A stretch of 64,000 bases of DNA from Hyaloperonospora brassicae (taxonomy: Eukaryota; Oomycota; Peronosporomycetes; Peronosporales; Peronosporaceae). Shown here in pieces: positions 1,722 through 64,000 of this stretch. Positions within the stretch are counted from its first letter, which is position 1. Each line of letters starts with the position of its first letter. The notes beneath the pieces were generated by a model that saw only the letters and a list, made by a program, of their open reading frames with translations, did not search any database and was not told the origin of the DNA. The position numbers and the translations under genes were made by a program. The stretch spans positions 209,421 through 273,420 of the forward strand of contig CANTFL010000148.1 in NCBI GenBank assembly GCA_947650285.1, read 5' to 3'.

Positions 1722-2009
1722 GCGAGCGACAAACTCGGTGTTACATCAGGTGCTGGCTCGTTGACGCCTCGTACGGGCACCTTTTCACGGCAGCTTTCTT
1801 CCCAGAGAGGGGATCAACCGGTTCGGTTTGACTATGTTGGTTGCGTATTATTGACATACGCAGACTTACATCTGGTCGATGTAATGTTAGCAGCGTAGAA
1901 GGTTAACTCTTGCTAAGAAATCGAGACAATCTATCGATGATTGGTATGTGGCCTGCGTCGATAAGACCGGACTCATGAAAGCTATGAAAAAGCTGCCGTC
2001 AAGGTCATC

Positions 2010-2760
2010 GAGAATGGATTCCACAAATGGCCATATCTGACAGGAAGGAGCTGATGACTAAGCTAGAAGCGCTCGCGACACGACACTCGAGCGCTAAAGA
2101 AGCAGTAGAGCTTCAGCCTTATCCAGCACAACTTTGGTTGTAGTCGTCCGAGAGCAAACCACGGGTCCGATATGGAAGCTCATCGCATATCTGACGAGGC
2201 TCAGAACATTGGTCAAATGGTTCGAACACCTTAACAAAGCACAACAGCATCTGTGTGAGCTGCAACGCGGCTGCCAGAGGCGTGTCATGATGTGTCTGGG
2301 GCATTATGACTGCAGAGAATCCTCTCATAGCAGCTCAACTCGGAGGGCCTGATGACTCTGAACCACGATCGCCCTTACCGTGGGTGCCACAACAAGTGAG
2401 TCTTCAAACGAATGCTATCGTACGTAGCTGCAGAAGTTGACAAGCTGCTATGAAGAAGGACAAAGTAAAGATGCCGACGCTTTGCTACGTCCAAGCCGAC
2501 GCAGATCATGGCACTTGTAAGCTGACTGTACAACTTCTGCAGCGACAGGTGTTCAATGCCCCAACAAGAAACGAGTATCGGCACTACAGAGAACAATCGC
2601 TGCTTGCCTAAGCGACGCTACCTGATCGCATGGATGTCATTGCGCCGACAAAGGTATGCATTGTTGTACCTGCGGTACAGCATCGACCACAGCTCATGCA
2701 CATGCGGTACCAACAACTTGTTCAACACCACCATAGAGACGCGAAGTAACGACTGTCCTA
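2010..2760 (+). pseudogene. Unidentified decayed coding stretch
   Basis: Read forward, this interval gives several protein-like segments in shifting frames broken by stops, for example ISDRKELMTKLEALATRHSS near 2030 and KKDKVKMPTLCYVQADADHG near 2455. The amino-acid make-up suggests an old gene or transposon remnant. No domain could be named. Confidence 0.25.
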
Positions 2761-2763
2761 CAA

Positions 2764-2841
2764 CTTACTGCACATTACCCTGTAACAAACGCACCGCAGC
2801 CCTTACTGTGGTGCGTTTGTTACAGGGTAATGTGCAGTAAG
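2764..2841. repeat. Perfect 32-bp inverted repeat (foldback or MITE-like)
   Basis: The arms 2764-2795 and 2810-2841 are exact reverse complements over 32 bases, separated by a 14-base spacer. Part of the spacer (GCCCTTACTG) is itself complementary to the right arm's outer edge (CAGTAAGGGC), so the end may have been partly duplicated. This could be a foldback transposon end, a MITE relic or a recent template-switch duplication. Confidence 0.8.
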
Positions 2842-2855
2842 GGCGTCTTGCAGTG

Positions 2856-2917
2856 CCTAATAGCACGGATGATGGATAACAGTGTAATGAAACTTATTTC
2901 CCCCTAATAGCACGGAT
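2856..2917. repeat. 15-bp direct repeat next to the foldback
   Basis: CCTAATAGCACGGAT occurs at 2856-2870 and again at 2903-2917. It lies just right of the 32-bp inverted repeat and may be part of the same rearranged or transposon-derived piece. Confidence 0.6.
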
Positions 2918-3150
2918 CATACCTCACCTCGGGCATATCCCGTGTCTAGCCAAGCCTCGAACTCAGTATAAGCAATCTGGTGTGCACCACACCACACCAC
3001 ACCGCACTTCAACCCGTCTTCCCCCATTGATACGCGCCGGTATCTCCTCCCCCACACTCACACTCACATTCGACAATACCCCCACACGAATCCACTCGCA
3101 CTCGCCCTCCACGTGCGTACGTGTCCCTCGCCCGATCCAATCCACGCACT

Positions 3151-7367: not shown

Positions 7368-8885
7368 CTACTCCACCGTCAGCACCTTGAGCATATTGGT
7401 TGAGCCTGAGCGGGCCTCTACCATACCGTGAAGAGCCACGACGTTATCGCCAGGCTCTACCCAGCCAAATTGCTTACCCAGGTCTGTTGCACGGTACAAG
7501 ATCGAGTCTGTGCCAATCATGGAGCCCATGCAACGCGCGGTGACGCCCTTGTTGAAGCCCTCAGCTTGACGGGCCGTTGCACCGAGTGCTGTAAGCACCA
7601 AGACGGGCATTGATGGACGAAACTTGGACACGAGACGCGCCGTGTTCCCCGACTCGGTGAGCACGACGATCATCTTGGCCTTGATGTCGATCGCTGTCTT
7701 CACAGCCGACGACGTGATGGCCTCTTGTGTGCTCATTTGGCCGTACGTATCGAGCACCGAGTCGTGAAGAGCCTGGTACAGCTCGTTGTAGTGGATCGCA
7801 CCTTCTGCTTGCACGCAGATCTTCGACATCATCGTCACGGCTCCAGTGGGGTAATCGCCGTTTGCAGTCTCCCCTGACAACATCACCGCGTCCGTGCCAT
7901 CGAGCACAGCGTTCGCGACATCCGTGCACTCGGCACGGGTCGGTCGTGGAGCTTTGATCATGGACTCGAGCATCTGCGTGGCCGTCACAACGGGTTTGCC
8001 AGCAATATTGGCCTTCCGAATGATCATCTTCTGGGCGAGAAACACCTTTTCCGGCGGGATCTCCATGCCCAAGTCCCCACGCGCGACCATGATACCGTCC
8101 GCCTTGGCCAAGATCTCGTCAAAGTTCTCAAGCCCTTCCTGGCTTTCAATCTTCGCGATGATCTTGATGCTCCGGCCGCGACGACCAAGCACCTTGCGAA
8201 TGTTGTCAATGTCTTGGCCCGTGCGCACAAACGACGCAGCAATGTAGTCCACGCCGTGCACGAGACCAAAGTTCACGAGGTCGTCCTCGTCTTTCTCGGT
8301 CAGCGTCGGAAGCATGACTTTGCAGCCAGGTAAGTTCATGTTCTTGCGCTCGCCCAGCGTCGCCGTGTTGTCCGCCCGAGTCACGACATTGTTCTCTTTG
8401 ATAGCCGTGACAGTCAGCACAAGTGCACCATCAGCAACGAGAATGGAGCCGCCGACTTTGACGGACTGGGGCAGCTCTGGGTACGAACAGGCGATCTTGG
8501 TCTCGTCGCCGAGGAAGTCGTAGTCGGTCGTGAGCTCCAGTGTCGAGCCCTTCTCGATCGTGACTTTGTCCTTGTTGGCCAGGAACCCCGTGCGGATCTC
8601 TGGCCCTTTGGTGTCCAGCATCGTGGCCACGTTCTTGTAGGGGCGTGTGGCCAACGCAGCCCGCAGTCGGTTGAGCGCCTCCGTGTGGCTCGCTTGGTCT
8701 CCGTGCGAAAAGTTGAAGCGCGCGACGTTCATGCCAGCGTCAATGAGCTCCGCCAGTCCTCCCTCGGACCAGCAGGCCGGCCCCAGCGTGCAGAAGATGC
8801 GCGTCTTGCGCTCCACACCCTCCACGCTGCGCATGATGCTCTCGAGCTGGCAGCCCTGGTGACTCAGTCCAATTGCTCCTGACAT
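7368..8885 (-). CDS. PK: Pyruvate kinase, copy 1
   Basis: A 505-residue pyruvate kinase, complete and of normal length, converting phosphoenolpyruvate and ADP to pyruvate and ATP in the last step of glycolysis. Visible blocks are IFCTLGPACWS and ARFNFSHGD near the N-terminus, LDTKGPEIRTG, the active-site signature IKIIAKIESQEGL with its catalytic Lys, the MVARGDLGMEIP metal-binding loop, and KPVVTATQMLESM, followed by an intact C-terminal domain. ATG 8885 starts the same MSGAIGLS N-terminus as copy 2 at 44,474. The two proteins are roughly 90% identical by eye. A probable 5' UTR intron ends 16 bases before the ATG. It faces away from copy 2 across a 35-kb repeat block. Confidence 0.97.
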   Translation of the reverse strand: MSGAIGLSHQGCQLESIMRSVEGVERKTRIFCTLGPACWSEGGLAELIDAGMNVARFNFSHGDQASHTEALNRLRAALATRPYKNVATMLDTKGPEIRTGFLANKDKVTIEKGSTLELTTDYDFLGDETKIACSYPELPQSVKVGGSILVADGALVLTVTAIKENNVVTRADNTATLGERKNMNLPGCKVMLPTLTEKDEDDLVNFGLVHGVDYIAASFVRTGQDIDNIRKVLGRRGRSIKIIAKIESQEGLENFDEILAKADGIMVARGDLGMEIPPEKVFLAQKMIIRKANIAGKPVVTATQMLESMIKAPRPTRAECTDVANAVLDGTDAVMLSGETANGDYPTGAVTMMSKICVQAEGAIHYNELYQALHDSVLDTYGQMSTQEAITSSAVKTAIDIKAKMIVVLTESGNTARLVSKFRPSMPVLVLTALGATARQAEGFNKGVTARCMGSMIGTDSILYRATDLGKQFGWVEPGDNVVALHGMVEARSGSTNMLKVLTVE

Positions 8886-34602: not shown

Positions 34603-34996
34603 TGTAAAGGGGCAGCCCGTTACATGGAAATTGTCATTTGAAGAGATAATGACAATAAAGAATATTACGTTATATATTCTTTTAAAAAATACACCAATGG
34701 TGGTGATATTGAAGGGTCGACCAAAGAGTCTGTTCATTGGTTGATATCTTGATGATATCAACCCACCAATCGCCGCAAGACGCGCGCAATGAGTGGTGAC
34801 GAGACGTCACCATACATTCAGTCATATTAGCATAATTAAGTTGAGTCAGACAAAGAGACAGTGGTTATAAGACTTAATTATATTGATACAACAGTTTTAC
34901 TTCTCCCTTATCTACGCTTCCTCGTTTGCCTCGTGTACGTCTGTCGGGGCATTGAACCCCTTGCGGTAAGTTCACGCAAGGGTGTGCCCCGTTATA
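34603..34996 (+). repeat. Gypsy 5' LTR
   Basis: It begins TGTAAAGG and ends in GTTATA (GTTACA in the partner). It aligns throughout with 42,189-42,579, including a long identical block GGGTCGACCAAAGAGTCTG. Several internal hairpins are shared with the 3' copy, with decay in the first 100 bases. Confidence 0.93.
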
Positions 34997-34998
34997 CC

Positions 34999-35011
34999 TG
35001 GTAGCACTTCG
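34999..35011 (+). other. Candidate tRNA primer-binding site
   Basis: TGGTAGCACTTCG starts two bases after the 5' LTR, the position where minus-strand synthesis is primed by a tRNA 3' end. The TGG start is complementary to a tRNA CCA tail. The tRNA species was not identified. Confidence 0.6.
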
Positions 35012-35040
35012 TAGTCCTTCCAAGGACCACAACATCCGAC

Positions 35041-36116
35041 ATGAACATGTTAAATGATGAGGAAACCTTTCACGCCACGCGTGAAGGGTTTATCCATTTG
35101 AGTGACATCGAATGGGGTGCGGTAGAACTAATGAGTTATACCGTAGGCGAGTTCGCCATTAGCGCCATATTGGAGTCTCTAGACAGAGACCAACTACATG
35201 CCGCTATCGCCAAGTTCATTCAACATGAACTTGTCGCCGAAAGGGAGAAAGCAGCCTTGCTTCACCAGCAAGGCTCTCAACAGGCCGAGCAGTTGAGAGA
35301 ACTCGGTGCTCAAGAGACAGAGCTGTTGAGACAGCAGTAATTCCATGCTGATGTGGGCGGGACGGCACATGCGCGTCGTCCCGAAGTCATGAAAGTTGAC
35401 ATCTCCAAGTACAGTGGAGCCCCGGAGGACTCCCTGTTACTGTGGTTTGTCGAAACCGACAGAGCCCTAAGGGCTCGGCGCGTCGAAGATGAGCAAATGA
35501 AACTCACATTTGCTCAAACCCACTTCGCAGGACGTGCCAAAACTTGGTCCCTGGGGCTCGAGAGTAGCAAACAAAATGTGTTTAGGTCGCTAGATGACTT
35601 CAAGGCCCGGCTCAGACAAACGTTTGAGCCGCCACGCGCTAAGTTCAGAGCTCGTTCAGAGCTCCTGAAACTCAAGCAGGGTAAGCGTGATGTGCACGCT
35701 TACGCTCAACATATACGGCTCCTCGCGAGTAGTATAACTGCTAACCCAGTTCATGAACACACGTTGATTACGGTGTTCATGCAAGGGCTCGCAGAAGGGC
35801 CCGTCAGGAGCCACCTGTTCCGCCTTGAGCTGAATACGCTGGAAGATACGATATCAGCCGCGGAACAGGAAGGCTTTAGCATGAGACAGGCTCATGCTAG
35901 CTCAAACTCTTACCGTCCACCAAGACGACAAGAGATCGGAGGTCCAGAACCAATGGACCTCTGCTATGTTGAGAGCGAGAGACCTCGCTCTTCAAACAAC
36001 AAGCGATTGCAGAGGTGCAATCGCTGTCAGAAGTTAGGGCACTAAGTATACGAGTGTAGTGCTCCACGCCCAGTACCAAACAGTACTGAGCGAAATGGAC
36101 GACCGTTCGCCAGAAA
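35041..36116 (+). pseudogene. Gypsy gag, two in-frame stops
   Basis: ATG 35,041 opens gag. A charged coiled-coil-like N-terminus (AEREKAALLHQQGSQQAEQL) is followed by an in-frame TAA at 35,338, where the neighbouring codons are CAG. The same frame continues through the gag core (MKLTFAQTHFAGRAKTWSL, FEPPRAKFRARSELLKLKQG) to a CCHC zinc knuckle, CNRCQKLGH, interrupted by a second TAA at 36,043 before the last Cys. Gag packages the element RNA into cytoplasmic particles. This copy cannot make it in one piece. Confidence 0.88.
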
Positions 36117-37340
36117 GTGAAATGGGCGTGGATCCAGCGCTGTTGCGAAGCCGCAACAGCGAGAAGGACCATCAAAGAATGGTCGGGGTCAGTAGGGGCG
36201 GAGCTCCCTACTGATTCAGCAACCTCAAGAAAATGTGCAAATCTCTTGACGAAAGTTGCTCCAGATACACAATCGTTGTATGTCTCTGCACCTGGTGATG
36301 ACGTTTCGCTCATCACCTGGAAGTTGGAAGCGACAAATGATTTGTCGCTTCGTGCCCTAGTAGACTGTAGGGCGTCAAACAACTTTGTTCGACGCCAGTC
36401 ACGAGAGGGTCGTAGGCTCAAGTTCGTTGAGCGCGACATTCTCCTCACGAGGATGACGGTGCGCCCTGCAACAGACGCATCGATAAACGTTGGGAAACAT
36501 GTAGTAGGAATCCACTACACGTTAGAGGGCGAACAGTACGATGGTGACTTCATCGTACTAGATCTGGATGAAAAATTTGATGTCATCCTGGGATTACCTT
36601 GGCTCAGAAAGTACGAGCCAAGGGTGAGCTGGCAGCATCGATCCGTAAAGATGCCTGCCGCTTGTTCATCAGATGGCCATCTGACGAACATCTTGAAGCG
36701 TCCACAAGCGTGTGGATGTTATGCGAGTGAGTGCGATGGCCTCACTTGCGGTACGGTCGTTAGCACGACTGCACAAGATCACAGTGTAGTTGATCACTAC
36801 ACTGTGGAGCAAGCTCCCGGCGGCTGTACAGAAGTACAGGTTGCGCCGAAGGTCCACCACTCGAATAAGTCGAGTGGACCGGGACATGGATGCATGCCTA
36901 GCGGGCAGAATTTTAGAAGAAAGAAACCTGTTGCCTCCAAGGGGCAACATGGAAATCCTAGGTCGACTGGAGAGTCGACCGTAGAGGATCGGTGCCTGAC
37001 TGTGGTTGCACAGCCACAGTCGGAAGACGTCGAGGGAATAAGTCCCCACGTACTTGAGGAAGGAATTCCTCAAGATTCACTTGCTGAGGGATCAGGCCCT
37101 CAGCAACCAGTGGAAGCAAGTTCCCAGGAAGAAACCGAGACGTTGAACGTCTTGGTTGATGACGGATCAAGCGTAGGCGCTTATACGCTTGATCTGATTG
37201 TGCCTCCGAAGTTAACTTCGGAGATAACTCAATTGCCAACGCTAGAACCGAAACGGTTCTTGCGTGACTTGCGTAGTGGCAAATTCAAGCAGATCTGCAT
37301 ACTCGTCACGGAGGATGAGTATGTGGCCGATATTTGGTAG
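36117..37340 (+). pseudogene. Gypsy protease and linker region
   Basis: A 407-codon open frame, shifted from gag. The aspartic protease active site reads ALVDCRASNNFV, where the family has (L/V)DSGA: the catalytic Asp is there but the Gly is Arg, which should disable it. The downstream FDVILGLPWLRKYEP block is the typical second protease motif. The following 230 residues are a hydrophilic linker. DNA hairpins are particularly clear here, for example 36,328-36,350 and 36,780-36,806. Confidence 0.85.
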
Positions 37341-37350
37341 GTAACAGTAT

Positions 37351-38795
37351 TTGCTGAGAACGAACGGGTTCTCAGCAGCTCATCGATGGACGAAAGTGTC
37401 CTCGATGAGAAGACTCGGATTGAGCGATACACGTCTCAATCCTGGGAGTCACTTCAGGCAAATCTTTTTGCAAAAGGATTTGATCGAATTCAAGGATGTA
37501 TTCCCTGAATCCGTACCTTGCGAGTTGCCTAAGGACAAAGGCACTCGACACGAGATCGTGCTCAAACCGGGCTCGAAGTACTGTGTCATGAAGCAGTGGC
37601 CACTGCCTCGTGAACAAGTACTAGCGATCGACAATTTCTTTGCCAATCTCTTAGCAGCGAGCCATGTGATACAATCAACATCCCCTCACAGCTCTCCGAC
37701 CTTCTGTGTGCGAAAGGCCACAGGAGGATGGCGGATAGTTCACGCATTCAACAACTTGAATGCTGCAACGGTACCGGCTCAGACGCCGATACCGGGGAAG
37801 GACGTTATCATAGATGTTATGTCTAAGAGTGTCATTTTCTCCTCCATGGATCTGATGGATGGATTCTATCAGATCCTCATGCGTGAGCGGGACATCCCGT
37901 ACACGGCAGTGAGCACCCCCAGCGGTATGCTGTGAGAGTGGCTAGTGATGCCACAAGGACTGACCAACGCCCCTGCGACGTCTAACCGATGTGTTACAAA
38001 TCTGTTGAGACCGGTGCAGAATTTTGCACCGAGTTATTTCGACGATGTGTTCGTCCACAGCCGAAATATGAACAAAACACACACGTGGGAGTTCACAGAA
38101 CTCACGTTCGTCAGGTTCTTCAACTTATGCGCAAGCATAAGTTGTACCTTAACCTCAAGAAGTGCATATATGCGGCTAGAGAAATACCACTTCTTGGGTG
38201 CATCGTGGGTAAATACGGCTTACGCCCTGATCCCAAAAATATCAAGGCGATCACCGACTGGCCAGTGCCAGTCGATGTCGAGGGTATAAGGAAGTTCCTA
38301 GGGCTAGCGGCGTACTTTCTCAAGTACTCGCGCAACTACGCCGAGATGACTGTTCATCTTTCTTGTTTACTCAAGAAAAATGTCAAGTGGTCATAGAACG
38401 CTGAGTGCCAGCGTTCATTTGAGGGTATCAAGCAAAGCTTGATGCAGTCGCCGATATTGGCGATTGCAGATCCGGACAGACCATTTCATGTGGTCTGTGA
38501 CGCCAGCGATTTTGCAATCGGCTGTGCGTTGATGCAATTTGACACAGATGGCGCGTAACGCGTCATCGGCTATCAATCGCGTCAGCTGCAAGCAGCTGAG
38601 CGTAATGTCCCAGTGCATGACAAGGAACTCCTTGCCATGAAGTACGCACTGGCTAAGTTTCGCGTCTATATCTTGGGAGATAGACCGTTTGTTGTCTATA
38701 CGGACCATGCGTCATTACGCACGGCCGTAAACAGCCCACACCTCTCGCAAAGGATGGCGGGGTAGCTGTCTTTCTTCGCGGAGTATAACTTCTCC
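37351..38795 (+). pseudogene. Gypsy reverse transcriptase and RNase H
   Basis: The RT blocks are KQWPLPREQV, GGWRIVHAFNNLN, IFSSMDLMDGFYQI, MPQGLTNAPA and the catalytic YFDD (38,035-38,046). A stop at 37,933 and a frameshift near 38,090 interrupt the frame, which continues with KKCIYAAREIPLLGCIVG. RNase H follows as VVCDASDFAIGCALMQF, VHDKELLAMKYAL, VYTDHASL and ADALSRRPD. Further stops lie at 38,394, 38,556 and 38,763. Confidence 0.92.
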
Positions 38796-39840
38796 GTGGA
38801 GTATAAACCAGGACGACTCAATGTCGTCGCTGATGCGCTTTCGCGCCGGCCCGATTTCGAGCCGGACGAACAATTCAACAGTGAGGATAAGCCCACTGTT
38901 GCGACACTGTCAGTCAGTGTCTCGTCGTCAAGTTTACTTGACGACGTACGAAAGGCATACGCGGAAGATAAGGATCTTCTGCGATTGATGGATCATCTGG
39001 CGAATCCATCCAGTAAATCCATGAGGGATTTACCAGCTTTGTACCGATCCTCATCGGATCGGTATAGTACACGCAACGGATTGCTGTACTATACAGCTGT
39101 TTCCGACGACCCGCCTCGTGTCGTCGTACCCGCTCATCATGATTTGCGTTTACGCATCATGTATGAGTGTCACGATGCCCCAACAGGCGGTCATCGTGGT
39201 AGAGGAAAGACTTACCTCACGGTAAGTCGTGACTTTTACTGGCCACGCCAGTATCAGTTTGTACGCAAGTACATACGTGCTTGCGAGGTTTGTCAACGGG
39301 TAAAGCCTAGTCCTTCATCCCGTGCGCCATTGCAGCCTCTGCCTGTTCCGACAGAGTGCTGGCAGTCCGTTTCGATTGACTTCGTCTTCGGGTTTCCCGA
39401 AGGCGCTCACAAGAATAATGGTATTCTTGTGTTTGTTGACCGATTCAGCAAGATGGTCCATCTTGATGTTGTACCTGAGTCGATCAAGGCTCAAGGTTTT
39501 ACACGGTCTCTAGACTCCACGGGTTACCCCGTGAACTCTTATCCGACCGTGACCCTCGGTTCACGGCGATATTTTGGCAATCCGTGTTTCGTTCTCTCGG
39601 AACACGATTGAAGATGTCTACTTCTGACCATCCCAAAACAGATGGTCAGACGGAACGTGCGAACCGTGTCCTGGAAGAGATCATTCGAGGATATGTCCAC
39701 TCGTTTCCGAGTTGAAGCGAATTCCTACCGATGGTGGAATTCGCCATCAATAATTCGGTGCATGCTTCCACACAGCACACACCGTTTTACGTGAATGGCC
39801 TACGCCATCCACGTGTGCCCACCCTTATAGAGTGTGACTC
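38796..39840 (+). pseudogene. Gypsy integrase, zinc finger and catalytic core
   Basis: The HHCC zinc finger is clear (ECHDAPTGGHRGRGKT ... CEVCQRVKP), preceded by AHHDLR. The core follows with SIDFVFGFP (first Asp) and ILVFVDRFSKMVHL. The region of the second Asp is damaged by a deletion or frameshift after 39,500. The last catalytic Glu block (DGQTERANRVLEE, about 39,640-39,680) is readable in another frame, as is MVEFAINNSVHASTQHTPF (39,731). Confidence 0.88.
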
Positions 39841-40095
39841 TTGGATAAGGGGGGAGGGACTCGCTCGAGCAAAAACCGTTTTGGCTCTTGCTCATCACGT
39901 GTCGACGCTAACGTCGTCACGTATGATGCCGATGTCGATCAAGTCGACACCGATGAAGAAGATCACCTCAATAATAGCGGCGACGCTATTATTGACTCGG
40001 ATGATGATGACGATGCTGTTATATTCAGCATCGTCAACGATTATGACAGCGAGGAATAAGACAGCCTCGCTGAAGAAGAGAGCAATCTCTTAGCA

Positions 40096-41073
40096 GTGCG
40101 CACGAAGCGCACTGAAAGACAAAACAAAGAGTCAGCAGAGAACTTCCTGTTGACTCGAGAAGCCGTAGTCCGTTTCGTTCAGGACTCCATCGCAAATGCG
40201 GTGGACCGTCAGAAACGGAACGCAGACAAGAATGGAAGAGCAAATGTTCTTTCATTTAAGGTTAAAGACCTAGTACTACTGTCTACGGTAAACTTACCTG
40301 GACATGCAGTCACTAGTGTCGGCAGTAGTAAACTACTGCCGAAGTACATTGGGCCATTTCGAGTGTTGTATCGCAAGGGCAATGCATACACACTCGAATT
40401 GCCACGTAGGATGCGCACGTATCCTACGTTTAACGTGGGGAGGCTCAGGCCGTACTGTCAGTACGAGACTTCTTCTTCCGATGAAGATAGCCCCCACGTT
40501 CAAGAACATCCATCAAGTTCTTGCGTTCGCGCTCCAGACGATCCGTATGGTCGCGCAGATATGATACCTCGGAACTCAACCGAGAAATCTCCCCGCGAGC
40601 TGTCGCCAGCTCGCCGGAAAGGGAGCGGATATCCCGCTCGACCTGAAGCTGCGCTGTGGCATAATCGGCGCGACCGCTCGCCCGATAAGCCTCGCGATCC
40701 TTGCGGTTCTTCCGCACGGTATCAGTCAAAGCGAAGCGCCGGTCGCACTCGTGCTTCAAGTCATCGCACAATTCATCGATTGCGCGATCCATCTCGTAAA
40801 GGTCGAGATAGTGAGCCGAATCATCTGGAGAAGTTCTTTCCTCCTCCACCACATCCTTTGGTGGATGCTCACGGTGATCAGCGCTTTCTAGTGGAGCGTA
40901 TCTTGAATCACCGTGACGATTCAGGATCAAGGACGAGCTACCTCGTCCAGTGGCGGGGGTATCCACCCTCTTGGAACAGCTGGGAGCCCCACTCTCAGCT
41001 GTTGATGGACGTTGAAGGTCTCGTCCGCCAGTATGACGAGACTCATCCGATTGGTCCTGTGGCCCATCGGTAA
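40096..41073 (+). CDS. Gypsy integrase C-terminus with chromodomain (open segment)
   Basis: A 325-codon open frame closing pol. It contains the GPY/F-type module ([10 protein letters not shown] ... [20 protein letters not shown]), then a long Ser/Arg/Pro-rich linker, then a chromodomain at 40,885-41,049 ([34 protein letters not shown]). Chromodomains target integration of chromoviruses to particular chromatin. The linker and chromodomain overlap an open frame on the other strand for 629 bases. The segment is open but the polyprotein upstream is broken, so it is not expected to be expressed as a functional enzyme. Confidence 0.8.
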
Positions 41074-42055
41074 ACACGCGCCCTAGGCGCTTGTAGACGG
41101 ATTGCAAGTTTGCAAGCGCGTCACGCATCTCAGCCGAGATTTGTGCCCTTCCCCAGGGCGAACTTAGGGAATACACGTCCCTATGTACACGCTGCGAGCT
41201 GTCAACACAACTCGCACAAGGGCATCCCCATGTGAGGCAAGGAATGTCTGCCTCACTCGATAAACAGCGCAAACGGTATCTTGCACCGATTGGTGTTCGC
41301 TTTTCGAACCTGAGACGTGTCGTCTCAAGTTTCTTGAGCCACCCTTCTCGTCCAAAATGTTTTACGCTTTGGACGAACGCGTTCCACGCAGCCAAAAGCG
41401 AGGCCTTGTCACGCTTTTGGTTGCCGTTGTACCATCGATGTCAAAGAAAGACATCGAGATAGGAATCTGCTGCAGCGCGAAAGTTCTTCGCGCTGGAACT
41501 CAAGCCGTGAAGCTCAGTCGCATCGAATAAGGGTATTCGATGGTGTTGGCTTGTCTCGTGAGACAAGCCATTGATGAGCCGTTCGGGCAAACGCCACGGC
41601 TTCAGCTCATCACGCTTCACAGTGGTAACTCTGTCGGTACCACGGCTCCCAGAATGACGACGGCTCACGCCATCGTCATCACGCTTGTGCGAAGAGGCAC
41701 GAGTCGGCGGTGGTAAGGAATAATACTCCTCACCACCCTGTTCACCTTCATCATCACTGCCGAACAGACTGTGATGCAACTTTCGAGTCCGTTCGTTCGG
41801 CAGTGGCCTTGGCGAATGCTGAGGCGTCGCCGGTGATCGAGACGCCTCTGCAGCATTGCCCGATTCAGACACGTATGACTTGCCAGATTAGATGACCTCA
41901 ACTTCGGGGTCATCATGCGCACGCGGTGTTGTACCGCGTACACCTGCAGCACCTGTTGCTGCAGGCGGAGAAGGAGCAGCAGACGACGAAGCGTCTGCCG
42001 CAGAGGCTGGCACAGCAGCGGGCTGTGTAGGTCTTGAGTCATCTCGCATAGACAT
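40445..42055 (-). pseudogene. Antisense gene within the gypsy element, two stops
   Basis: Starting at ATG 42,055 (MSMRDDSRP), one frame runs 537 codons with only two internal stops (TAA at 41,890-41,888, TGA at 41,443-41,441). The middle contains RLINGLSHETSQHHRIP and LLAAWNAFVQSVKHFGREGW, which read as a folded domain. The C-terminal 120 residues are a strong heptad-like coiled coil ([38 protein letters not shown]). It lies between the 3' LTR and pol in opposite orientation and overlaps the chromodomain coding region. I believe similar hypothetical proteins are annotated in Phytophthora genomes, but could not check. Function unknown; a gag-like or accessory role is possible. Confidence 0.65.
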
Positions 42056-42174
42056 GTTAACTATGCGAGGTCAAGCGGAAAGTGAATGGAACGGACCCAA
42101 CAAGTGCTCCCTGTCCCAATGGTGGCCAACGGGTGGCTGCCATATTTTCGATAGTCACACGGTGACTATCAGTT

Positions 42175-42188
42175 AAGGGGGGGGGTGA
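42175..42188 (+). other. Polypurine tract of the gypsy element
   Basis: AAGGGGGGGGGTGA directly precedes the 3' LTR. It is the expected primer for plus-strand synthesis. Confidence 0.8.
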
Positions 42189-42579
42189 TGTAACGGGGCA
42201 GCCCGTTACATGGAATTGTCACTTTGAAGAAAGTGACAATAAAGAATATGAAGATGGATATTCTTTGAACAATATCACCAAAGTGGTGATATTGAAGGGT
42301 CGACCAAAGAGTCTGTTCATTGGTTGATATCTTGATGATATCAACCCACCAATCGCCGCAAGACGCGCGCAATGAGTGGTGACGAGACGTCACCATACAC
42401 TCAGTTATATTAGCATAATTAAGTTGAGTCAAACAGAGAGACAGTAGTTAAAATACTTAATTATATTAATATAACAGTTCTGCTTTTACCTTACCTACGC
42501 TTCCTCGCTTGCCTTGTGTACGTCTGTCGGGGCACCGATACCCTTGCGTTAAGTTCACGCAAGGGTGTGCCCCGTTACA
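42189..42579 (+). repeat. Gypsy 3' LTR built from serial hairpins
   Basis: It starts TGTAACGG and ends CCGTTACA. Perfect hairpins sit at 42,189-42,210 (arms 9), 42,215-42,240 (11), 42,241-42,266 (9), 42,270-42,294 (11), 42,322-42,346 (10), 42,377-42,395 (7) and a nested pair at 42,528-42,574. Promoter elements could not be singled out. Confidence 0.93.
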
Positions 42580-42873
42580 GCCAGTGTCGATCAAGTCATC
42601 ACCGTTTTTTTTACATCTTAAATTACTATCAGATCCTTGTAAACGCGAGTAGAATAGCAGTTGCGTGCTTACCAAATCGGCACAAGTATCCTCAGTGTCG
42701 TACGCACATCAAACCGTGATACGACTGGTACTGCTCCCTATTCCAGTGTGACCACCACTTTCCGTGTCCAAGTAGAACTCGCACAAGCGGTTTCGTTACC
42801 CACAACACGATAACTTTTTACGCAGTGTGCGCTGACCTCTATCCGAAGCGTCTACGATGCGAAAGTGATTATT
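42580..42873. other. Spacer right of the gypsy element
   Basis: No gene or clear motif was seen. A T-run lies at 42,606. Confidence 0.4.
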
Positions 42874-57760: not shown

Positions 57761-58778
57761 CTTGCAGGGGGAGCAATCTCAACTGGCCGGAGCGGCACAC
57801 GTACGCATGTGGGTTGTACCGTGTCACCCCGAGATGTCTCTATCTGATCGGTGCATGTTAGGGCTTCAGCTCGAATCGCACAGAAGCTGGGCATTGAAGT
57901 AGCTGTTCTGCGGTGACAAAGTTACATCGCCTGGTGAATGGGAAGAGCTCAGGTGTCTGTGCTTGCTTTGGTGACTGGTTTTATTTCGAGTCTTCAGCTT
58001 GTGGGGAGAGAACAACTGAAATACGTACTTCCACTCCACTGCTTCTGAGACGGTGCCACGATCAACGAACCCGAACGAAACAGAGAGCAGTATATGCGGT
58101 GCTTGATACGTACCACTGCCTATTGCATGCAGACGAAACAAAGCTCTTTTCGAGGGCGAATAGATCGCAGTGGGAAGGGTAGTGCTCACAATGATCCGTT
58201 CAGCTATGCCTCTGGTATCTCAGGCGTTTCGCTACAGGAGATCGGAGATCGGCTCACACAAAAGTACAGGGGACACGCTAGTTCTAAGCACAGGGATACT
58301 TGGCACCCGCCTAACAAAGGTACCTACTGAGGTCGCGAGCCATATGCAAATAACGGGTCGATCGACGACACCAGCATTGCTACTTTGGTTAAGAAAACGG
58401 AGACATTTTGCCACAACACGACCTGACACAATCACCGTCTCCCTTGCTTTCACATGCCTATATTCAGTTTGACATGCTGTACAGAAGACGTGAATCACTC
58501 ACTTTGGCCAGAATATGCCACTTGCAGCCGAGTGTTTCCAAACTTGACAGCAGGCCGAGCTCAACAAGTACGTTGCAGTAGTCTCTGGCAATGATCTCGT
58601 CTACGATTCATTACTTCCCCATGTCTGCTGCATCATTGTGCATATTGATGAGGGGCAAATCTGCCACTTTTTTGTGTGCAAACTAGATTTAGCGCAATCG
58701 ATCTGGTCGTTGCTAATAGCTGGCTCTGAGGCATTCACGACCAGCAGCGTCACGGATCAGGTCCTCGTCATGTGTTTT
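57761..58778. other. Spacer right of the effector candidate
   Basis: Short overlapping frames only. No recognisable domain. Confidence 0.4.
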
Positions 58779-58812
58779 ACCGTCGCAGTACCGTCGCCGA
58801 TACTGCGACGGT
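58779..58812. repeat. Perfect 12-bp hairpin
   Basis: ACCGTCGCAGTA (58,779-58,790) and its exact complement (58,801-58,812) flank a 10-base loop that repeats the CCGTCG core. It lies in otherwise anonymous DNA. Confidence 0.75.
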
Positions 58813-59046
58813 ACTCTGGAACGCGCTGGGCATGTAAAGGCCACGCTCGACCAGAGAGCACTGATTTGCTCAGCCGGTAGTCTACCACCAGCTCGTGGAA
58901 ATTTCCCACGAGTCCAACGCAGACGACACATTCAGTCTTTGCTTTCGTGGTGTGCAAAAACTGTCCGACGAGTCTCAGTCGTCGCGGCAAAAAGGGCGGC
59001 ACCATTTGCTGTGGACTCATCGTAAGACACTGTCCACACGCTCTTG

Positions 59047-62031
59047 TTGTTTCTCCTATCATGGTGGTGGTGTCAAGTACGTCCATTATTATGATAACTA
59101 ACGACTGATAAGTGTGACAAGAAGTACGGCCCGGGTATCGGGTCGACAACTAAAGGGCTCCGTAGAGCCAGGGGCGACGGCAACGAGGTCAGAGACCCTC
59201 CTACCGAAGCCAACTACGTGTCAATCATGACCGCTGGCGCGACCAAGTAGACTGGGGACATGCGTACCGCCGGAGCGGCAGCACGTACAACGCGGGTATG
59301 CTGCCATATAAGGCAACAAACCCCTTTAGGACCGCTTGCGCGGCCCCCGACGTGGAGTGCGATCACCGAAGTGACTGCGTGGCGTGGAGAACGCCAACCC
59401 GCCATATATCTCTCCGAGGAGCTCAACCATCTGCGATGGTGGCTCCCTTCAGCCGCTTGCGCGGCCCCCGACGTGGAGTGCGATCACCGAAGTGACTGCG
59501 TGGCGTGGAGAACGCCAACCCGCCGTATATCTCTCCGAGGAGCTCAACCATCTGCGATGGTGGCTCCCTTCAGCCGCTTGCGCGGCCCCCGACGTGGAGT
59601 GCGATCACCGAAGTGACTGCGTGGCGTGGAGAACGCCAACCCGCCATATATCTCTCCGAGGAGCTCAACCATCTGCGATGGTGGCCCCCTTCAGCCGCTT
59701 GCGCGGCCCCCGACGTGGAGTGCGATCACCGAAGTGACTGCGTGGCGTGGAGAACGCCAACCCGCCATATATCTCTCCGAGGAGCTCAACCATCTGCGAT
59801 GGTGGCCCCCTTCAGCCGCTTGCGCGGCCCCCGACGTGGAGTGCGATCACCGAAGTGACTGCGTGGCGTGGAGAACGCCAACCCGCCGTATATCTCTCCG
59901 AGGAGCTCAACCATCTGCGATGGTGGCTCCCTTCAGCCGCTTGCGCGGCCCCCGACGTGGAGTGCGATCACCGAAGTGACTGCGTGGCGTGGAGAACGCC
60001 AACCCGCCATATATCTCTCCGAGGAGCTCAACCATCTGCGATGGTGGCTCCCTTCAGCCGCTTGCGCGGCCCCCGACGTGGAGTGCGATCACCGAAGTGA
60101 CTGCGTGGCGTGGAGAACGCCAACCCGCCGTATATCTCTCCGAGGAGCTCAACCATCTGCGATGGTGGCTCCCTTCAGCCGCTTGCGCGGCCCCCGACGT
60201 GGAGTGCGATCACCGAAGTGACTGCGTGGCGTGGAGAACGCCAACCCGCCATATATCTCTCCGCGGAGCTCAACCATCTGCGATGGTGGCTCCCTTCAGC
60301 CGCTTGCGCGGCCCCCGACGTGGAGTGCGATCACCGAAGTGACTGCGTGGCGTGGAGAACGCCAACCCGCCGTATATCTCTCCGAGGAGCTCAACCATCT
60401 GCGATGGTGGCTCCCTTCAGCCGCTTGCGCGGCCCCCGACGTGGAGTGCGATCACCGAAGTGACTGCGTGGCGTGGAGAACGCCAACCCGCCATATATCT
60501 CTCCGAGGAGCTCAACCATCTGCGATGGTGGCTCCCTTCAGCCGCTTGCGCGGCCCCCGACGTGGAGTGCGATCACCGAAGTGACTGCGTGGCGTGGAGA
60601 ACGCCAACCCGCCATATATCTCTCCGAGGAGCTCAACCATCTGCGATGGTGGCTCCCTTCAGCCGCTTGCGCGGCCCCCGACGTGGAGTGCGATCACCGA
60701 AGTGACTGCGTGGCGTGGAGAACGCCAACCCGCCGTATATCTCTCCGAGGAGCTCAACCATCTGCGATGGTGGCTCCCTCCAGCCGCTTGCGCGGCCCCC
60801 GACGTGGAGTGCGATCACCGAAGTGACTGCGTGGCGTGGAGAACGCCAACCCGCCATATATCTCTCCGAGGAGCTCAACCATCTGCGATGGTGGCTCCCT
60901 TCAGCCGCTTGCGCGGCCCCCGACGTGGAGTGCGATCACCGAAGTGACTGCGTGGCGTGGAGAACGCCAACCCGCCGTATATCTCTCCGAGGAGCTCAAC
61001 CATCTGCGATGGTGGCTCCCTTCAGCCGCTTGCGCGGCCCCCGACGTGGAGTGCGATCACCGAAGTGACTGCGTGGCGTGGAGAACGCCAACCCGCCATA
61101 TATCTCTCCGCGGAGCTCAACCATCTGCGATGGTGGCTCCCTTCAGCCGCTTGCGCGGCCCCCGACGTGGAGTGCGATCACCGAAGTGACTGCGTGGCGT
61201 GGAGAACGCCAACCCGCCGTATATCTCTCCGAGGAGCTCAACCATCTGCGATGGTGGCTCCCTTCAGCCGCTTGCGCGGCCCCCGACGTGGAGTGCGATC
61301 ACCGAAGTGACTGCGTGGCGTGGAGAACGCCAACCCGCCGTATATCTCTCCGAGGAGCTCAACCATCTGCGATGGTGGCTCCCTTCAGCCGCTTGCGCGG
61401 CCCCCGACGTGGAGTGCGATCACCGAAGTGACTGCGTGGCGTGGAGAACGCCAACCCGCCGTATATCTCTCCGAGGAGCTCAACCATCTGCGATGGTGGC
61501 TCCCTTCAGCCGCTTGCGCGGCCCCCGACGTGGAGTGCGATCACCGAAGTGACTGCGTGGCGTGGAGAACGCCAACCCGCCGTATATCTCTCCGAGGAGC
61601 TCAACCATCTGCGATGGTGGCTCCCTTCAGCCGCTTGCGCGGCCCCCGACGTGGAGTGCGATCACCGAAGTGACTGCGTGGCGTGGAGAACGCCAACCCG
61701 CCGTATATCTCTCCGAGGAGCTCAACCATCTGCGATGGTGGCCCCTTCAGCCGCTCGCGCGGCCCCTTGACGTGGAGTGTGCGCTCGCCGCAGCGGCGAC
61801 ACGTGGCGCGGGGTACGCCTCCAGTCCGTAAAACACCCCTGCTAGGGCCGCTTGCGCGACCCGTCGGTCTCCTACGCCCACTCCCGCGACTGCGAGTGCA
61901 GCGTGCCCGCGTCAGATCTTCGACCACGTCGGCTCCCCAAGGGGAGGATTCCCTCCGACGTGACTGCCCCGAAGGGAAAAAGACTGGCTTGAGCTGAACC
62001 GTGAAAATTTGGGAATTGTTTCTCCTATCAT
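59047..62031. repeat. 16-bp direct repeat bracketing the tandem array
   Basis: TTGTTTCTCCTATCAT occurs at 59,047-59,062 and 62,016-62,031, about 285 bases either side of the 121-bp array. On the minus strand both copies read as the peptide MIGET within longer open frames, so they may be two copies of the same source sequence. Confidence 0.55.
59332..61750. repeat. 121-bp tandem (satellite-like) array, 20 copies
   Basis: Twenty head-to-tail units begin CCGCTTGCGCGGCCCCCGAC. They are almost identical, differing mainly at one A/G site (CGCCATAT or CGCCGTAT), a rare C (CCGCGG, units 8 and 15) and a C/T near the end. A diverged partial unit follows at 61,751. Since 121 is not divisible by three, each reading frame rotates through the unit and ends in a stop every three copies, so the many 117-codon frames are artefacts. 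GC-rich, with a short ACCAT/ATGGT palindrome in each unit. Confidence 0.95.
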
Positions 62032-64000
62032 AGCCAGCGCACCATCATCATCTCTTTTTGCCACTTGTTTGCACTCCGACTGGACTCTATCCGCTGAAGC
62101 CACCTCGCGTTCGGCCAGCGAGATCAAGTTGAACACAGAATGGATGCCCCAGTGCCGGGTCCTCAGATAAAATACCCTGGAAGTTCCTTGTTCCACTAGC
62201 TGGTACATAAGCCGTGGACGCGAGCGCTGACCGACTGCTTGAGATTACGCAAAGCTTCTCTACGCACTAATGTTAGGAATCTGAGCGACGCATGCAGCAG
62301 AGCCTCCTGCTCTTCCCAACAAAACCACGCTGTCACTTTGGTCCAAATGCTTCTGGTTTGATGTCGCAATCTGACGTCGCATCAAGGCCAATAACTTGGC
62401 ATGCAGTCCTTCGAGACCTGAAAGGTCACGTACATCGAGCACGTGGACAGTCGGTGACACGAGCGACTCATCGAGAGCTTTACTTGTCTCATTGAGCCAG
62501 CAAGTTTATGTCTCACGCATGACCGATTTCAATACAAGCGATAACGCACGCGAAGAACCGATATCATCTAGCAGCACTGCATCGCTTGCGCTTGGGTCGT
62601 GATTAGTGTATCAACCATTGCAAGTCCGCTCTCTTGCAACACTCTGACTTGACGTCTCGCAAGGTAGCGTCACTGCTAGAAATGGCATGGCCAGTGTCGT
62701 ATACTATAACACGTCGAAAGAAACCTCGAATACGATCTGCACTTGCCTCGGCGTCCTATACACGACCCTCAGCTTACACCACGTTTGCGCAACACTTGCA
62801 AAGTAGACATACAGGCGAAAAGCGTTTCCAGAGTGTCCATCCTCCATGAACTCCCTCTACCCAATACATCTCCCAAGCGACTTTACATCTTCCTCCAATG
62901 AACTTGCAAGTGTCCAAAATGCACACAAGGTTTGCATTGCTCAATGTCGTGTCCACAGTTATAGTAATGCACTTCACACTGTGCGAACTCATAATCGCTG
63001 TGTGACAATCGCACATCTACTCCACCCGTGTGCAAATCCAGCTTGTTCTCGAGTACGTGGTGCGCCATGGCTGAGCACTTAAATTACCAGCCGGGTCTAT
63101 TCATGCCATGTAGCAACCTCCACACCAATTTGTCGAGCTTCTTTGCTGCTTCGCACAGTTCAAAATTCTAGGACCCGTCTCCATCTCCTCTGCGTTATCC
63201 GCTATTCGACCCTCCTACACAGTAGCTGCCCATACCTCAGCACTCTGTTAAACTTGTCGTCTTGGGCCCCATATGCCGTGGCTAGAACCCATCTTTTGCG
63301 TACTAAAGTACACTCCTGAACTGTCTGCAGCTCGATACGCGAAAACTTTTATCTCGATTGCTCGAGTGTACCAATCGATTTTGGTCGAATGCTCACAGGA
63401 TCTTGTAACTCCTGTCGGGAGCTCTTCATATCATTTCGTCTTGTCTTGAATTACACTCTCGCCTCTACCCTCTAGCGAGCGTCCAGATACTCCATTTTTG
63501 CTCTCTTGAGCGCTTTGCTACATATCAAGATACACCTTCGTGACGCCTATGAGATTGGCTGTCTTTTTTGCAGCCGCCAATGCGCTCGTTCACTCGACTC
63601 TCATATCTTGACGAACGTATGCTCGTGCATGCTTCAGACGCGCTCTATTGTCCACGGTTGCTGTTGAGCCCCACGCGTACCTTTTCAGGATGTTAGGCGT
63701 GGCACAAATCGTCTACGAAAAAGGAATTTGGTCTTGGTTTTGTTTCCATATAGGGGAAAATGGAAGACACCTGTGCGCGATGCGTAAACAAGCTGTACAA
63801 AGAAAAGTAATGGACTGCTGCACGTGTGTAAATCAATAATGCTGATGATCTGCCCTTCTTAGTTTATACAAGCCATCATTCGGATCAAAGAATGCACCAG
63901 ACCTTATCGAAACAATTTTCATAGAATACATATTCATCACAGACTGGGTCGAGTTTCCGTGGTACCGATGAATATGACCACAACTCCGACAAACATAATT
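61751..64000. other. Right-end region with minus-strand coding relics
   Basis: Just after the array a second CCCCT...AGGGCCGCTTGCGCG sequence (about 61,838-61,857) resembles the sequence entering the array on its left. Minus-strand segments such as DVRDLSGLEGLHAKLLALMR (about 62,430) and VASADRVQSECKQVAKRDDD (about 62,100) look protein-like but are broken by stops, so they may be a pseudogene. The last kilobase shows no gene. Confidence 0.35.

What the first reader, a model, noticed from the sequence alone, without database searches (positions are those of the whole stretch)
34603..42579. A retrotransposon written as a string of short perfect hairpins
Nearly every 25-35 bases of this chromovirus form a perfect stem with arms of 6-11 bases and a loop of 2-15. 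Examples: 36,294-36,317, 36,328-36,350 (arms 10), 36,535-36,559 (9), 36,780-36,806 (10), 37,081-37,106 (10), 37,848-37,876 (9), 38,121-38,144 (10), 38,396-38,416 (8), 41,232-41,256 (8), 41,392-41,420 (9). From 38,876 to 39,093 there are seven in 218 bases. They run through gag, protease, RT, integrase, the antisense gene and the LTRs, while encoding ordinary conserved protein motifs. In the parts of PGK and the pyruvate kinases I read I saw nothing comparable. Synonymous choice therefore seems bent toward local self-complementarity. Possible causes: selection on RNA folding or packaging, shielding from or feeding of small-RNA silencing, or a mutational process such as hairpin templating during reverse transcription. 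I know of no description of this.
Basis: seen in the sequence. Interest (0 to 1): 0.9.

Follow-up and report, generated by a model that had tools for sequence, protein, structure and literature searches.

The report
Retrotransposons written as short hairpins
In this water-mould genome, four related families of jumping genes are packed with short stretches that are exact mirror images of each other, each family with its own hairpin size, and the pattern looks more like the trace of a copying process than of RNA folding.

Summary
The window element has 12.9 perfect inverted repeats per kb (arm >=7, loop <=15) against 1.04 in the rest of the window; its ORFs exceed codon-preserving shuffles by 5.7-29 s.d., four host ORFs do not. 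Six of fourteen other sampled copies carry more (16.8-18.0 per kb), so the window copy has decayed. Three other chromodomain Ty3/gypsy families show it at family-specific sizes: B mostly arms 7-10, C arms 7-9, D arms 5-6 with loops 0-5. One other gypsy lineage and 26 of 30 Copia loci do not; four Copia loci have a mild excess.

RNA-folding selection is disfavoured: inside stems G.T mismatches are no commoner than A.C (57:67, 12:16, 7:8, 29:32). In one working subfamily stems changed about four-fold less than other sequence, in most decayed copies hardly less; but variants shared by copies are only two-fold rarer in stems. Hairpin positions turn over between families, with compensated pairs and one clean loop inversion. 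I think fold-back or strand-switch copying in the element's own replication writes and repairs the hairpins, filtered by protein selection (0.45). Selection for hairpins as family-specific recognition sites is the main rival. Eight literature searches found no description; nearest analogue: coding palindromes of Nematomorpha mitochondria.

The parts
34603..34995 (+). 5' LTR, 5 perfect hairpins (12.7/kb)
34996..35352 (+). stretch between 5' LTR and gag frame, 8.4 hairpins/kb
35353..36042 (+). gag open frame (Retrotrans_gag), 14.5 hairpins/kb
36117..37337 (+). open frame with retroviral-type aspartyl protease (RVP_2), 15.6 hairpins/kb
37351..37932 (+). 5' part of reverse transcriptase (RVT_1 25.9 bits, below the Pfam cut-off in this piece; full RVT_1 in sister copy L069)
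38796..39608 (+). integrase zinc-binding frame (Integrase_H2C2); 14.6 hairpins/kb over 38,796-40,095
40096..41070 (+). SH3_Tf2-1 and chromodomain frame, 9.2 hairpins/kb
40448..41395 (-). antisense open frame; no supported domain
41071..42199 (+). region between chromodomain frame and 3' LTR, 15.1 hairpins/kb
42200..42581 (+). 3' LTR (its first bases may lie about 10 bases upstream), 7 perfect hairpins (18.3/kb)
36327..36351 (.). example hairpin, arms 12, loop 1
36780..36806 (.). example hairpin, arms 11, loop 5; identical in 8 of 11 copies shown (one base differs in L005, two in L079, four in L078)
38876..39094 (.). densest quoted stretch, six non-overlapping hairpins plus one overlapping

Best explanation
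A lineage of chromodomain-bearing Ty3/gypsy retrotransposons in an oomycete genome carries dozens to about 150 perfect inverted repeats per element because the copying step of its own life cycle writes and repairs them. SHOWN: the excess over codon-preserving controls; family-specific arm and loop sizes; no wobble advantage inside stems; turnover of hairpin positions between families; compensated pairs; one loop inversion; in one working subfamily, reduced change of stems that most decayed insertions lack. INFERRED: while the element's RNA or single-stranded cDNA is copied, the growing strand folds back (or jumps to the sister strand) at a short imperfect inverted repeat and copies one arm from the other, making the arms exactly complementary. 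Protein constraint then decides which products survive, so third codon positions end up dictated by the opposite arm. Each family has its own reverse transcriptase, which would set its characteristic arm and loop length.
For: Perfect stems against local shuffles (placements, so one long stem counts more than once): A 166 vs 2.2, B 71 vs 1.1, C 41 vs 0.9 (8 bp), D 140 vs 18.9 (5 bp). One-mismatch stems G.T:A.C 57:67, 12:16, 7:8, 29:32; in D they are at chance, i.e. perfect or nothing. In A, single mismatches inside stems shared across copies: 42 A.C, 31 G.T, 28 other, pooled over five related copies. Changes private to L007, a subfamily differing mainly at third codon positions: 12/1232 in stems vs 104/2766 outside; decayed copies L001 19/1233 vs 59/2765, L002 26/1229 vs 69/2766, L079 26/682 vs 73/1519, L078 63/666 vs 141/1509 (stems defined in at least four other copies). 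0 of 30, 32 and 19 gap-free A hairpins are kept in B, C and D; B and C keep some with both arms changed together. Loop GGAG is CTCC on identical arms in L081; spacer inversion between inverted-repeat arms is a reported outcome of template switching (PMC8604942, abstract and passages). LTRs share the pattern. A realizes 31 of 131 8-bp hairpin placements that its protein permits (loop 3-6), a host gene 0 of 164.
Against: Changes between B and C in broken hairpins are spread evenly over both arms (sum |d1-d2| 45, binomial expectation 70), not piled on one arm as a single copying event predicts, though these families may be saturated. One loop inversion only, in 15 A copies; none in 19 B, 5 C and 6 D copies, where few loops differ. 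Columns with a variant shared by at least two of eight A copies are only two-fold rarer in stems at third positions (12/294 vs 51/628) and not rarer at positions 1-2 (13/567 vs 25/1274), so maintenance rests mainly on L007. Close copies compared with L003 also show fewer changes in stems (for example L006 9/1258 vs 44/2739), partly because stems were defined in L003. Closing pairs and positions within stems have family-specific base preferences, which a sequence-blind copying process does not predict. Just outside D stems G.T exceeds A.C (37 vs 19). No copying event has been observed.
Confidence: 0.45

Rival explanations
1. Selection for hairpins as dispersed recognition or packaging sites, read by a family-specific protein (Gag nucleocapsid, reverse transcriptase or integrase) on single-stranded cDNA, on both strands, or on RNA with strict geometry.
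For: Family-specific geometry (spans mostly: D 12-15 with mode 13 = 5-3-5, B 19-23, C 19-26, A 20-28). Positional preferences: B/C arms read roughly G N C N Y N R from the outer end, position 7 a purine in about 58 of 67 (B) and 38 of 41 (C), from the printed frequencies. Oriented closing pairs. Fewer changes in stems in the L007 lineage. Compensated pairs.
Against: No loop consensus. G.T inside stems no better than A.C. Hairpins cover 39% of the internal part of A and also its LTRs. Positions are not conserved between families.
Confidence: 0.32
2. Selection on folding of the sense RNA (protection, or order across the genome as proposed for persistent RNA viruses; the latter comparison is recalled).
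For: Very stable predicted fold of A (L003 601-2000: -704.9 kcal/mol; L069 piece Z -24); D piece Z -5.8, B piece Z -2.3. Just outside D stems G.T 37 vs A.C 19.
Against: Inside stems G.U is not preferred over A.C in any of the four families. B gains little folding energy in the piece tested despite a large excess of 8-bp stems.
Confidence: 0.08
3. Evasion of, or feeding into, small-RNA silencing through self-complementary stretches of 20-26 nt.
For: Spans of A, B and C lie mostly between 19 and 28 nt.
Against: D spans are mostly 12-15 nt; G.U would be tolerated in RNA; no small-RNA data here.
Confidence: 0.05
4. A host chromosomal process (replication template switching, cruciform repair) acting on inserted copies.
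For: Such processes are known in chromosomes (PMC8604942, PMC8794818). The one loop inversion is in a decayed copy, L081, so it may itself have happened after insertion.
Against: Most decayed copies diverge nearly as much in stems as outside; host genes, most Copia loci and another gypsy lineage (L077) lack the pattern.
Confidence: 0.05
5. Chance, composition or assembly artefact.
For: None found.
Against: Dinucleotide and codon shuffles; hundreds of copies on many contigs.
Confidence: 0.01

Closest known systems
Coding palindromes in mitochondrial genes of Nematomorpha (PMC6649704; abstract and discussion read)
   Same: Perfect inverted repeats inside functional coding sequence; no excess of imperfect ones; gains and losses between relatives; template switching considered by its authors.
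   Different: There: animal mitochondria, repeats up to 284 bp. Here: about 40-150 short hairpins per element, LTRs included, in nuclear retrotransposons, with family-specific sizes and base preferences.
Template switching that creates and maintains RNA hairpins (PMC8794818; abstract and discussion read)
   Same: A mechanism that makes perfect stems and compensated changes in one event.
   Different: Described for DNA replication of RNA genes; here it would be pervasive and tied to one retroelement lineage.
Template switching between inverted-repeat arms in yeast genes (PMC8604942; abstract and passages read)
   Same: Arm homogenization and 2-5 bp spacer inversions in coding sequence.
   Different: 39 genes over the evolution of one yeast species versus dozens of hairpins in a single element.
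Oomycete Ty3/gypsy elements with chromodomain, Chronos (PMC5348765; abstract and passages read)
   Same: Oomycete Ty3/gypsy with a chromodomain after integrase.
   Different: Chronos has an extra RNase H (aRNH) that Pfam did not show in B, C or D; the words hairpin and inverted repeat do not occur in that paper's main text.

Membership tests
Ty3/gypsy LTR retrotransposon | gag, protease, RT, RNase H, integrase in that order between LTRs | tested here: met
   all in order in D; gag, protease, part of RT and integrase in the window, RNase H in sister copy L069, protease to integrase in B, RT to integrase in C; LTR pairs
Chromovirus | chromodomain C-terminal to integrase | tested here: met
   Chromo 50.3 bits in the window, 36.0 B, 41.4 C, 25.5 D (cut-off 25.1, half of the model only)
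Chromovirus | RT falls in the chromovirus clade | not tested
   no tree with outside references was built
Chronos (oomycete) | second RNase H (aRNH) | tested here: not met
   only one RNase H region at E <=0.001 in B, C and D; A tested only over its 931-aa protease-RNase H frame; Pfam only
Hairpins made by template switching | Watson-Crick-perfect arms without wobble advantage | tested here: met
Hairpins made by template switching | loop (spacer) inversion on intact arms | tested here: met
   one event, L081 against the other A copies; none in the B, C, D sets
Hairpins made by template switching | changes clustered in one arm at the time of gain | tested here: not met
   B-C comparison more even than binomial; comparison possibly saturated
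Selected RNA secondary structure | more stable fold than synonymous shuffles | tested here: met
   A Z -24, D -5.8, B only -2.3, one 1200-base piece each
Selected RNA secondary structure | G-U pairs tolerated above A.C | tested here: not met
   inside stems; but just outside D stems 37 vs 19
Nematomorpha-type coding palindromes | perfect arms, no excess of imperfect ones | tested here: inconclusive
   clear in D; A, B and C also have some one-mismatch excess, mostly transition-type in A

The most novel reading that the evidence does not exclude
Each family of this retrotransposon lineage obeys its own size-and-sequence rule for an array of about 40 to 150 perfect hairpins (D 5-3-5; B/C arms with G N C N Y N R; A arms 7-12), written into genes and LTRs alike by, or for, its own replication machinery: a second code laid over the protein code, set by the element's reverse transcriptase or capsid and evolving family by family.
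Probability: 0.4. Interest if true: 0.95.

Novelty: new variant of a known kind. Interest (0 to 1): 0.85.

Why it matters
If hairpins are written by self-copying during reverse transcription, these elements are a natural record of a mutational mechanism that usually leaves rare traces, and a test bed for how perfect stems arise, an open question in RNA evolution. If they are selected, they are a dispersed recognition code in a eukaryotic retroelement that differs in size between sister families. Either way, such pervasive self-complementarity in coding DNA would bias codon-usage, dN/dS and RNA-structure analyses of these abundant elements.

Tried and rejected
Searches for the same elements outside this genome gave no DNA: viral contigs with the protease-RT part of A and with the four-family RT alignment, bacterial and archaeal genomes. 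Independent host species could therefore not be compared at DNA level; named protein relatives in the listed hits are mostly Phytophthora, Peronospora, Pythium, Globisporangium and Aphanomyces (best 120 of 1494). Rfam: no match in the element. Loop motif for a packaging signal: none. Flanking consensus around hairpins: weak. Spacing fits random placement with exclusion (CV 0.63-0.87). The short-hairpin excess in window 60,001-64,000 overlaps a tandem repeat of about 120 bp. Pattern search 58 could not tell loop orientation, because the pattern is its own reverse complement. One search showed a one-step intermediate for an apparent three-base jump in L007, so I dropped that as evidence for template switching. 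In one search the C folding value is not used (the piece was cut out of frame). My first estimate of stem conservation (L007 third positions 4/298 vs 41/632) used stems defined in one of the two copies compared; one search redoes it without that bias and gives a smaller effect, so I lowered the leading explanation from 0.50 to 0.45. The feasibility count is approximate: it forgets some coupling between successive codons. Four Copia loci stood out against dinucleotide shuffles, but their main open frames show only 2-6 long hairpins against 0.9-2.5 after codon shuffling.
Full report
WHAT IS THERE. The element lies at 34,603-42,581 between LTRs of about 390 bases in a 100.6-Mb genome. Pfam finds gag, aspartyl protease, part of RT, integrase zinc finger, SH3_Tf2-1 and chromodomain in its broken frames. 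Its family (A) is large: a degenerate RT-motif pattern read from it matches 849 places (429 + 420). In the protein database the listed relatives are 61-91% identical, and those with species names are mostly from oomycetes (best 120 of 1494 hits).

THE COUNT. With arm >=7 and loop <=15 the element holds 103 non-overlapping perfect inverted repeats, 12.9 per kb; the other 56 kb of the window hold 58, 1.04 per kb. All ten quoted examples check out. Shuffling synonymous codons within five ORFs leaves 0.2-0.4 hairpins of arm >=8 where 5-15 are seen; two pyruvate kinases, a trehalose-phosphate synthase-like gene and an aspartyl protease show no excess. Over whole loci, the copies L003-L008 hold 16.8-18.0 per kb, the window copy (L001) 13.2 and L002 12.5; of the seven copies fetched later L080 has 16.4, L079 14.1, L073 13.6, L076 12.3, L081 10.4, L074 7.7 and L078 5.9, some loci reaching beyond the element. 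The window copy is thus a partly decayed one. A 1200-base coding piece of L069 folds at -0.501 kcal/mol/nt against -0.344 for synonymous shuffles (Z -24).

OTHER FAMILIES. Three further chromodomain families, about 65% identical to A over the best DNA match and 67-68% in RT protein, show the phenomenon at other sizes. Observed/shuffled mean in coding parts: B, loop 0-5, arm 8 14/0.5, arm 9 8/0.2, arm >=10 6/0.1. C, loop 0-5, arm 9 8/0.2. D (L038), loop 0-5, arm 5 53/12.1 and arm 6 21/4.0, with 1 of arm 7 (1.1 expected) and none above; in D loops of 6-15 show no excess. In 26 of 30 Copia loci long hairpins stay within 2.5 times the dinucleotide-shuffle mean; L040, L041, L042 and L050 reach 3.6-5.6 times, as much as some C loci, but their main frames show little against codon shuffles. 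Gypsy copy L077, of another lineage, shows none. LTRs are rich too: A 12.7-18.3 per kb, B 9.1, C 15.2, and 10 short ones against about 2 in each D LTR.

NO WOBBLE ADVANTAGE. If folding of the sense RNA were selected, G.U pairs should survive and A.C should not. In stems with one internal mismatch G.T:A.C is 57:67 (A), 12:16 (B), 7:8 (C) at 8 bp and 29:32 (D) at 5 bp (placements, not independent stems). In D one-mismatch stems are at chance while perfect ones are 140 against 18.9. In A the near-perfect stems of five related copies are mostly shared by descent: A.C 42, G.T 31, other 28 pooled, and 9 private. Against this, just outside D stems G.T and T.G stand at 37 and A.C and C.A at 19; in A, B and C these are 24:22, 7:11 and 7:7.

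WHEN IT ACTS. L007 differs from L003 mainly at third codon positions (11, 5, 45 differences at positions 1-3), so both descend from working elements. With stems defined by at least four other copies, changes private to L007 are 12/1232 in stems and 104/2766 outside (ratio 0.26); most of these lie outside the main frame (11/370 vs 89/836), with 1/294 vs 9/636 at third positions. For the other copies the ratio is 0.60-1.69 (L003, with one change, left aside): for example L001 0.72, L002 0.85, L079 0.79, L081 0.81, L078 1.01. Columns with a variant shared by at least two of eight copies: third positions 12/294 in stems vs 51/628 outside, positions 1-2 13/567 vs 25/1274 (no difference), other 7/370 vs 40/834. 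So stems seem protected in the active cycle more than after insertion, but the evidence rests mainly on one lineage.

TURNOVER AND REPAIR. None of the gap-free A hairpins (30, 32, 19) is kept in B, C or D (19, 17 and 30 more were set aside for gaps). Of D's short hairpins, 3 of 24 gap-free ones are intact in A and 1 of 68 in B. B and C, 63% identical in protein, keep 6 of 46 B hairpins fully, 3 of them with both arms changed together, and 6 of 29 C hairpins, 2 with compensation (examples). Compensated T-A to C-G pairs are also visible between LTR variants (read by eye). In L081 the loop GGAG stands inverted as CTCC on unchanged arms. It is the only such event in 15 A copies; none in 19 B, 5 C or 6 D copies, where only 46, 10 and 112 loop comparisons differ at two or more bases, against 1332 in A. 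L081 is itself decayed, so this inversion may postdate insertion. Spacer inversion and arm homogenization are what template switching between inverted-repeat arms does in yeast genes (PMC8604942, passages), and template switching has been proposed as a maker of perfect RNA stems (PMC8794818, abstract and discussion).

PROTEIN CONSTRAINT. Counting which hairpins a protein could hold under any codon choice, A (L069) realizes 31 of 131 possible 8-bp placements with loop 3-6, B 40 of 283, C 16 of 297, D none of 146 (but 64 of 568 5-bp ones), a Copia frame none of 76, a host gene none of 164. A uses the registers where third positions pair with first or second positions; B and C also the 3rd-3rd register (11 of 30 and 6 of 19 possible). 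The element proteins allow 1.21-1.27 times more hairpins than residue-shuffled versions, host and Copia proteins 1.06-1.11 (near the shuffle scatter). Protein identity in A hairpin arms is lower than outside against B and C (0.50 vs 0.61, 0.49 vs 0.59), but C arms against B are more conserved (0.73 vs 0.62).

WHAT DOES NOT FIT. Broken hairpins between B and C have changes spread evenly over both arms, against single copying events unless saturated. Closing pairs are strongly oriented (B GC 36 vs CG 10, C 26 vs 5, D CG 70 vs GC 23 and TA 43 vs AT 17), and B/C arms follow G N C N Y N R from the outer end. D peaks sharply at 5-3-5. These point to a sequence-aware step, either a preference of the copying enzyme or recognition by a protein. 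One copy per family was used.

VERDICT. A real and very strong feature, found in four related retroelement families. Most likely (0.45, lowered from 0.50) it is written and repaired by fold-back or strand-switch copying in the element's replication and filtered by protein selection; selection of hairpins as family-specific recognition sites is next (0.32). The closest published relative is the set of coding palindromes in Nematomorpha mitochondria (PMC6649704, abstract and discussion), whose authors also argue from the lack of imperfect repeats. Eight literature searches gave no report of this in retrotransposons among the titles and abstracts listed; the library holds open-licence papers only.

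Noticed in passing
window 59,200-61,800: Tandem array with a unit of about 120 bases, GC 61-65%; its copies overlap an apparent excess of short hairpins.
   Followed up: partly
L001 and L002, aligned to L003 (mostly 2160-2590 and 2870-3108): The window copy and L002 share 75 differences from five other copies, 35 of the 61 coding ones at third codon positions, as if they carried a segment of another active subfamily (recombinant).
   Followed up: partly
L069 1-900 vs 7,600-8,500: The sister copy's 5' end aligns only weakly with its own 3' LTR; the window LTR pair is about 90% identical (ungapped, 300 bases).
   Followed up: no
L040, L041, L042, L050 (Copia): Long hairpins 11-13 against 2.2-3.6 expected by dinucleotide shuffling; in their main frames only 2-6 against 0.9-2.5 after codon shuffling.
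   Followed up: partly
window 2001-3000 and 58001-59000: Isolated long perfect inverted repeats with arms 32 and 13 outside the element.
   Followed up: no
window 40,448-41,395 minus strand: A 316-aa antisense open frame over the chromodomain region; only a sub-threshold Pfam match.
   Followed up: no
L071 2,871-3,259: Family C has an internal tandem repeat (steps of about 66 bases, 76-90% alike) in its protein frame.
   Followed up: no
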